Shown piece after piece: positions 17,831-18,195 of a DNA stretch of 64,000 bases. Made by a program: the position numbers and the translations under genes. Positions within the stretch are counted from its first letter, which is position 1, and each line of letters opens with the position of its first letter. Source of the stretch: Chloroflexota bacterium (lineage in GTDB: Bacteria > Chloroflexota > UBA11872 > UBA12225 > JAJDUF01); contig JAJDUF010000010.1 in NCBI GenBank assembly GCA_022826725.1, forward strand, positions 310,001-374,000, in the 5' to 3' direction. Below the pieces are notes generated by a model. The model had not been told where the DNA came from. It did not search any database and saw only the letters and a list, made by a program, of their open reading frames with translations.

Positions 17831-18195
17831 GCACCGGGCACCGCCCGGCAGGGACCCACTCGCATTATCATGCTAGTCAACAGCGGTGGCGTAGCCACCC
17901 AGCCGAGGGCACCGGGTCATGAGCGACCCTGCGCCGCCTTGCGCGCGGCGCGGCATGGCCGCCTGAGTGCCGCTTCTACGGCACCGGGTGCTGACGTACC
18001 CCCGGCCACCACGGCCGGGGCGCCGGGTCAGTACTGTCTGAGTGCCGCCCCGAGGGCACCGGGTCATGGCAGACCCGCCGCCGCCCAGCGTGCGGCGGGA
18101 CATGACCGTCTGAGTGCCGCCCTCCAGGCACCGGATGCTGGCGCACGGCTGGCCGTTACGGCCACGCCGCCAAGTCATCACCGTCCGAGTGCCAC
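17831..18195. repeat. tandem array of 72-78 nt two-hairpin units
   Basis: GCACCGG(G/A) at 17831, 17909, 17981, 18056, 18128; GTGCC-N8-GGCAC hairpins between the later units; second hairpin in each full unit with unit-specific stem sequence. Confidence 0.8.

What the first reader, a model, noticed from the sequence alone, without database searches (positions are those of the whole stretch)
17831..18195. Tandem array of structured two-hairpin repeats with apparent compensatory changes
Seen directly: GCACCGG(G/A) recurs at 17831, 17909, 17981, 18056 and 18128 (spacings 78, 72, 75, 72). Hairpin 1 is constant, GTGCC-N8-GGCAC, at 17967-17984, 18042-18059 and 18114-18131, with a different 8-nt loop each time. 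Hairpin 2 differs in sequence from unit to unit but keeps pairing: GGTCATG/CATGgCC plus GCGCCGC/GCGGCGC (17915-17960); GTGCTGAC/GTCAGTAC plus CCCCGGCC/GGCCGGGG (17988-18034); GGTCATG/CATGACC plus CCCGCCGC/GCGGCGGG (18062-18107); GATG/CATC plus GGCG/CGCC plus TGGCCG/CGGCCA (18134-18179). Changing stem sequence with conserved base pairing suggests selection on RNA or cruciform DNA structure. It lies in a roughly 0.9 kb intergenic stretch upstream of the alpha/beta hydrolase and downstream of the broken RM gene. I do not recognise a described family, so novelty is inference.
Basis: partly seen in the sequence, partly recalled or inferred. Interest (0 to 1): 0.85.

Follow-up and report, generated by a model that had tools for sequence, protein, structure and literature searches.

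The report
Translated tandem stem-loop gene family
The repeat is one of about 30 dispersed copies, in an uncultured Chloroflexota genome, of a gene whose coding sequence is built from tandem RNA stem-loops with conserved pairing and an open reading frame, an arrangement that matches no family in the RNA and protein libraries searched.

Summary
The array (four units, 17908-18193) is one of at least 29 dispersed copies in this Chloroflexota genome, with more in a sister species. Unit stems covary strongly: 12 of 23 pairs changed on both sides, 0/500 shuffles as high. Each array is enclosed by a long terminal stem and preceded by a TTGTCT-N15/16-CAATATG block.

The stretch is not plain intergenic DNA. 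It lies in an open frame (17813-18646). All 77 unit-to-unit distances are multiples of 3. Across 18 copies the frame has no stop between the closing arm and a conserved 3' module (other frames 10 and 21), and the phase is kept in 16/17 although the gap varies from 145 to 316 nt. Longer subtypes carry a strong ribosome-binding site and a C-terminal domain; there the terminal stem buries that site and the start codon, with double-sided changes.

Best reading: a multi-copy, recombining gene family of dual-coded transcripts (structured RNA plus translated frame) whose terminal stem probably gates translation. The gating is inferred. Closest known kind: Rickettsia palindromic elements and MITEs. 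No Rfam, Pfam or PHROG match.

The parts
17762..17790 (+). Promoter-like block TTGTCA-N17-GATATG, just upstream of the 5' arm
   Evidence: In 38 of 41 copies scanned: TTGTC nearly invariant, second block CAATATG/CGATATG, spacing varying by one base only. The standard sigma-70 scan does not score it, so promoter is inference.
17799..17837 (+). 5' arm of the terminal stem; contains SD-like GGGAG (17802-17806) and ATG (17813)
   Evidence: Pairs with 18238-18281 in the consensus fold; arm states differ between copies and mostly match their own partner.
17813..18646 (+). Open reading frame of 277 aa that contains the array
   Evidence: frame without stops and in constant phase across copies. Second in-frame ATG at 17870, equivalent to an ATG/GTG kept in 17 of 18 copies.
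17908..17971 (+). Unit 1, type A (64 nt)
17980..18046 (+). Unit 2, type B (67 nt)
   Evidence: Covariance model R1 hit 93.1 bits
18055..18118 (+). Unit 3, type A (64 nt)
   Evidence: R1 hit 48.7 bits
18127..18193 (+). Unit 4, diverged B-like (67 nt)
   Evidence: R1 hit 61.2 bits
18238..18281 (+). 3' arm of the terminal stem
   Evidence: Consensus fold; arm list
18334..18435 (.). Unrelated dispersed repeat lying between the closing arm and the 3' module in this copy
   Evidence: Matches many other places in the loci, in and out of elements
18437..18550 (+). Conserved 3' module (peptide THQVHPATQVPPRPQTCSVAGAGSPRQHPSRAPP)
   Evidence: Present downstream of about 19 copies of types 1 and 2, same reading phase in 16 of 17 type-1 copies

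Best explanation
The array is the core of a multi-copy gene family of one Chloroflexota lineage. Its transcript probably starts near 17797 and does two jobs. As RNA it folds into a string of bulged stem-loop domains (alternating A and B units of 64 or 67 nt with 8-nt spacers) closed by a long terminal stem. As message it is translated through the whole array in one frame. In the full-length subtypes (3 and 4) the 5' arm of the terminal stem is the ribosome-binding site plus start codon, and the 3' arm lies about 430-690 nt downstream inside the coding sequence, before a C-terminal domain. The most likely working is therefore a translation gate: ribosomes load while the RNA is being made, and once the 3' arm is transcribed a free transcript closes and becomes silent. 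Copies gain and lose units, exchange interiors by gene conversion and recombine with each other; the window copy is itself such a mosaic. Shown: copy number, covariation, terminal stem, frame conservation, mosaicism, unit-number change between species. Inferred: transcription, translation, gating, and any benefit to the host.
For: Covariation in the unit: 96% of cells paired, 12 of 23 pairs with changes on both sides, score 0.265 against 0.124 shuffled, 0/500; sliding the partners destroys it. Bulges and internal loops are conserved, so the units are not simple palindromes. + strand: fold z -7.3 against -4.75 for the other strand; G-U 108 cells against A-C 42. Terminal stem: matched arm states such as CGGGGATTGG/CCAATCCCCG, TTGGGA(T)GTGG/CCACTCCCAA and GGGAGTGG/CCACTCCC; in types 3/4 the SD arm pairs with CCTCC-bearing arms (about -29 to -34 kcal/mol) and the position just before GGAGG's flanking G changes on both sides (C-G, G-C, T-A). 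Frame: 77 of 77 unit distances divisible by 3; 0 stops in the array frame in 24 arrays; 0 stops against 10 and 21 in the other frames from closing arm to 3' module, phase kept in 16 of 17 copies with gaps of 145-316 nt. Types 3/4 have SD, ATG and a C-terminal domain with dN/dS 0.54, and relatives in over 100 contigs. Elements stand between genes that mostly run the other way, so they are not leaders of the next gene. Unit numbers differ between orthologous copies and the window is a mosaic.
Against: The array does not look coding at residue level in type 1: dN/dS about 1.1 (B, A64), 0.56 (A67); codon-position GC is highest at position 1 and lowest at position 3, unlike genes of this genome; new stops are not depleted among single substitutions in units. 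Several type-1 copies have lost the first ATG or shifted frame in the leader, leaving only a start at codon -13 without an obvious ribosome-binding site. The G-U excess is weaker when counted by column (23 against 13) and absent in the inner stem. In types 3/4 the best pairing of the 5' arm exceeds the mean of shuffled arms but not always the best of them. No expression data.
Confidence: 0.5

Rival explanations
1. In-frame palindromic parasite, like Rickettsia palindromic elements: the units are selfish DNA palindromes that spread inside reading frames because in-frame copies are tolerated; RNA pairing is a by-product of the palindrome and has no regulatory role.
For: Units strictly multiples of 3 and in frame; residue sequence of the array hardly constrained; several unit types, tandem gain and loss. 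RPEs insert in frame into ORFs (PMC10969869).
Against: Bulges and internal loops are conserved in sequence, which palindrome spread or palindrome-templated repair would not preserve; the terminal arms covary around the ribosome-binding site; + strand bias of wobble pairs; units were not found outside this gene family in the two genomes.
Confidence: 0.25
2. Non-coding structured RNA: types 1 and 2 are stand-alone functional RNAs (for example a multi-site protein sponge or scaffold), and the open frame is a relic of descent from the coding types 3/4.
For: No codon-position signal in type-1 units, no depletion of new stops, degenerate start codons, strong covariation and conserved upstream block.
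Against: Phase and openness are kept across variable inserted repeats downstream of the array in 16 of 17 copies, hard to explain for a relic frame.
Confidence: 0.15
3. MITE-like DNA element: the terminal arms are transposon inverted repeats moved by a transposase in trans, and hairpins act as DNA.
For: Long matched terminal arms, about 30 dispersed copies, sister elements missing at three orthologous sites of this genome.
Against: No clean empty site or target duplication: intergenic content on both sides also differs; many copies are orthologous between the species; + strand preference.
Confidence: 0.08

Closest known systems
Rickettsia palindromic elements (RPE)
   Same: Short palindromic DNA kept in frame inside open reading frames, many copies per genome
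   Different: Here units form tandem arrays inside one gene family, are bulged stem-loops with covariation, and are enclosed by a terminal stem; no sequence relation was tested
MITEs / REP-type repeats
   Same: Dispersed, sub-kilobase, terminal inverted repeats, intergenic location, restricted to a lineage
   Different: Internal conserved RNA-like domains, conserved reading frame, no demonstrated target duplication or transposase
hok-type mRNAs with 5'-3' long-range pairing (own knowledge)
   Same: A distal segment pairs with the 5' region and could silence the full transcript
   Different: No small hydrophobic toxin; the distal arm lies inside the coding sequence with a stem-loop array between the arms
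Large ornate RNAs (OLE, GOLLD, ROOL; PMC12286853)
   Same: Hundreds of nucleotides of conserved multi-domain structure
   Different: No Rfam match; variable number of near-identical modules; multi-copy; reading frame kept

Membership tests
Any Rfam family | Covariance-model score at or above the gathering threshold | tested here: not met
   only sub-threshold chance hits in the element (best E 0.26)
Pfam / PHROG protein family | Profile match above cut-off | tested here: not met
   nothing above cut-off for types 3/4; the window ORF was tested against Pfam only, no match
RPE-like in-frame palindromic element | Palindromic unit kept in frame in an ORF | tested here: met
   frame; pairing
RPE-like in-frame palindromic element | Inserted into unrelated protein genes | tested here: not met
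   Units found only in this element family in the two genomes
RPE-like in-frame palindromic element | Sequence homology to RPE | not tested
   No Rickettsia comparison was made
MITE | Terminal inverted repeats | tested here: met
MITE | Target-site duplication and precise empty site | tested here: inconclusive
   presence/absence at three sites, but neighbouring intergenic DNA also replaced
Structured RNA | Covariation beyond chance | tested here: met
Structured RNA | Transcript exists | not testable with these tools
   No RNA data
Protein-coding gene | Conserved open frame and phase | tested here: met
Protein-coding gene | Residue-level purifying selection in the array | tested here: inconclusive
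   dN/dS 0.44 in type 3, about 1.1 in type-1 B and A64 units

The most novel reading that the evidence does not exclude
A new class of dual-coded genetic element: messenger RNAs assembled from tandem, interchangeable structured RNA domains that are all translated, with a giant covarying stem that buries the ribosome-binding site, amplified to about 30 copies per genome and diversified by module shuffling.
Probability: 0.35. Interest if true: 0.8.

Novelty: new variant of a known kind. Interest (0 to 1): 0.62.

Why it matters
If both layers are functional, this is a natural system in which RNA domain architecture and a reading frame are under selection on the same bases in about 30 parallel copies per genome, which makes the trade-off between RNA folding and coding measurable. 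It is also a large unannotated repeat family that appears to seed gene conversion and rearrangement in Chloroflexota genomes.

Tried and rejected
Relatives in the same class: blastn hits in G013 and G022 were read and look like chance matches inside ordinary gene sequence. Unit model R1 over 41 class and 399 phylum genomes hit only the two species of this genus, though only a few candidates per genome were scored in the large run. The exact-pattern scan of named genomes confirmed the sister MAG only; the other loci gave no R1 hit. One viral-contig match was a chance match. AlphaFold of the C-terminal domain gave pLDDT 54, so no fold search was made. A sigma-70 and terminator scan found nothing on the element's strand. 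The 3' module has little conserved structure beyond one CCGCGG hairpin. The first hypothesis (pure non-coding RNA) was lowered after the frame tests; a pure protein-repeat explanation was rejected because paired columns covary with amino-acid changes and third codon positions are not the variable ones.

Full report
What was checked. The sequence at 17831-18195 is as described. The copy at 17831 belongs to the leader; the array proper has four units, 17908-18193. A blastn search of the window's own genome (4.14 Mb, 23 contigs) returned 38 matches, and fetching the places gave at least 29 distinct elements. A species of the same genus, the MAG 'Chloroflexi bacterium jk18x44bins.5', has further copies.

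Anatomy. Copies share, from 5' to 3': a block TTGTCT-N15/16-CAATATG; the 5' arm of a terminal stem; a leader with a GGTGGC..GCCACC hairpin; a run of units; the 3' arm; and, in types 1 and 2, a conserved 3' module mostly about 150-320 nt further on. Unit A is 64 or 67 nt and unit B is 67 nt, joined by 8-nt spacers. Each unit is a bulged hairpin: outer stem GGCAC/GTGCC, a five-nucleotide 3' bulge (TCTGA-like), two CG pairs, a bulged G, a 6-8 bp middle stem, an asymmetric loop and an inner stem. Type 2 copies have shorter single-hairpin units; types 3 and 4 continue into a C-terminal domain.

Pairing. On 42 distinct B-like units, 96.0% of cells pair, 12 of 23 pairs carry double-sided changes, and every measure exceeds all 500 shuffles; sliding the partner by 1-3 columns drops pairing to 33-44%. 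Departures on the + strand are G-U more often than A-C (108 against 42 cells; 23 against 13 by column). That favours RNA over a DNA cruciform but is not decisive: the excess is in the outer and middle stems only. The window copy folds with z = -7.3 on the + strand and -4.75 on the other.

Terminal stem. Types 1 and 2 show three main matched arm states. One sister copy, L036, has a 5' arm of one state and a 3' arm of another, and its flanks match two different loci here, which fits recombination between copies. In types 3/4 the 5' arm contains a strong ribosome-binding site and the ATG, and the best partner is a CCTCC-bearing stretch 428-688 nt downstream inside the ORF; L090 runs off its contig. 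One position of that stem, upstream of the GGAGG core, is C, G or T with G, C or A opposite.

Reading frame. All 77 unit-to-unit distances found with the covariance model are multiples of 3. The array frame has no stop in 24 arrays. Because the units share ancestry, the stronger test is downstream: between closing arm and 3' module the gap ranges from 145 to 316 nt because different unrelated repeats are inserted, yet phase is the same in 16 of 17 copies and stops are 0 in that frame against 10 and 21 in the others. Related ORFs in over 100 other contigs are known, and many carry the same arrangement. Residue-level constraint is weak: dN/dS 0.54 for the type-3 C-terminal domain, 0.44 for the type-3 array, 1.18 for the part holding the 3' arm, about 1.1 for type-1 B and A64 units, 0.84 for the 3' module. 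Codon-position composition of the array is unlike genes of this genome. So the frame is kept while the residues are largely free, and the paired bases are kept.

Context and evolution. Elements lie between genes; the upstream gene runs the other way in 19 of 29 cases and the downstream gene in 20 of 28, so they are not leaders (home-made gene caller). Many copies are orthologous in the sister species, with different unit numbers. At the window's own site the sister holds a type-2 element; the window copy is 0.88-0.97 identical to it at both ends and matches type-1 copies (about 0.95 in its first half) in the interior, a clear mosaic. Three sister elements are missing at the orthologous sites here, but neighbouring intergenic sequence differs too, so insertion and loss cannot be told apart and no target duplication was seen.

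Distribution. R1 found nothing in 41 class and 399 phylum genomes outside this genus. A small 121-aa protein in a class relative (L139) resembles the C-terminal domain (35% identity, E 9e-5). No Rfam, Pfam or PHROG family applies.

Interpretation. The evidence supports two layers on the same DNA: covarying RNA structure and a kept reading frame. I commit to a dual-coded transcript whose terminal stem gates translation (0.5). The main rival is an RPE-like in-frame palindromic parasite (0.25; RPE facts from PMC10969869). A non-coding RNA with a relic frame (0.15) and a MITE (0.08) are less likely. Transcription, translation and gating have not been shown.

Noticed in passing
window 18334-18435: Another dispersed repeat (CCCTCTCCACATGGTGGAGAGGGGGCC...GGTGAGG) occurs many times in this genome, often just upstream of or inside these elements.
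   Followed up: partly
window 18562-18599: A further short dispersed repeat with matches at most of the loci examined.
   Followed up: no
   Followed up: no
L036 / L108 (sister species): An element whose left flank matches locus L014 and right flank L025 of this genome: a rearrangement with its junction at an element.
   Followed up: partly
L139 1438-1803 (-): 121-aa protein of a class relative, similar to the type-3 C-terminal domain and lying near a LexA-like gene; possibly the ancestral stand-alone form.
   Followed up: partly
window 17883-17900: GGTGGC of the leader can pair locally with GCCACC or at long range with GCCACC near 18206-18213, a possible switch.
   Followed up: no
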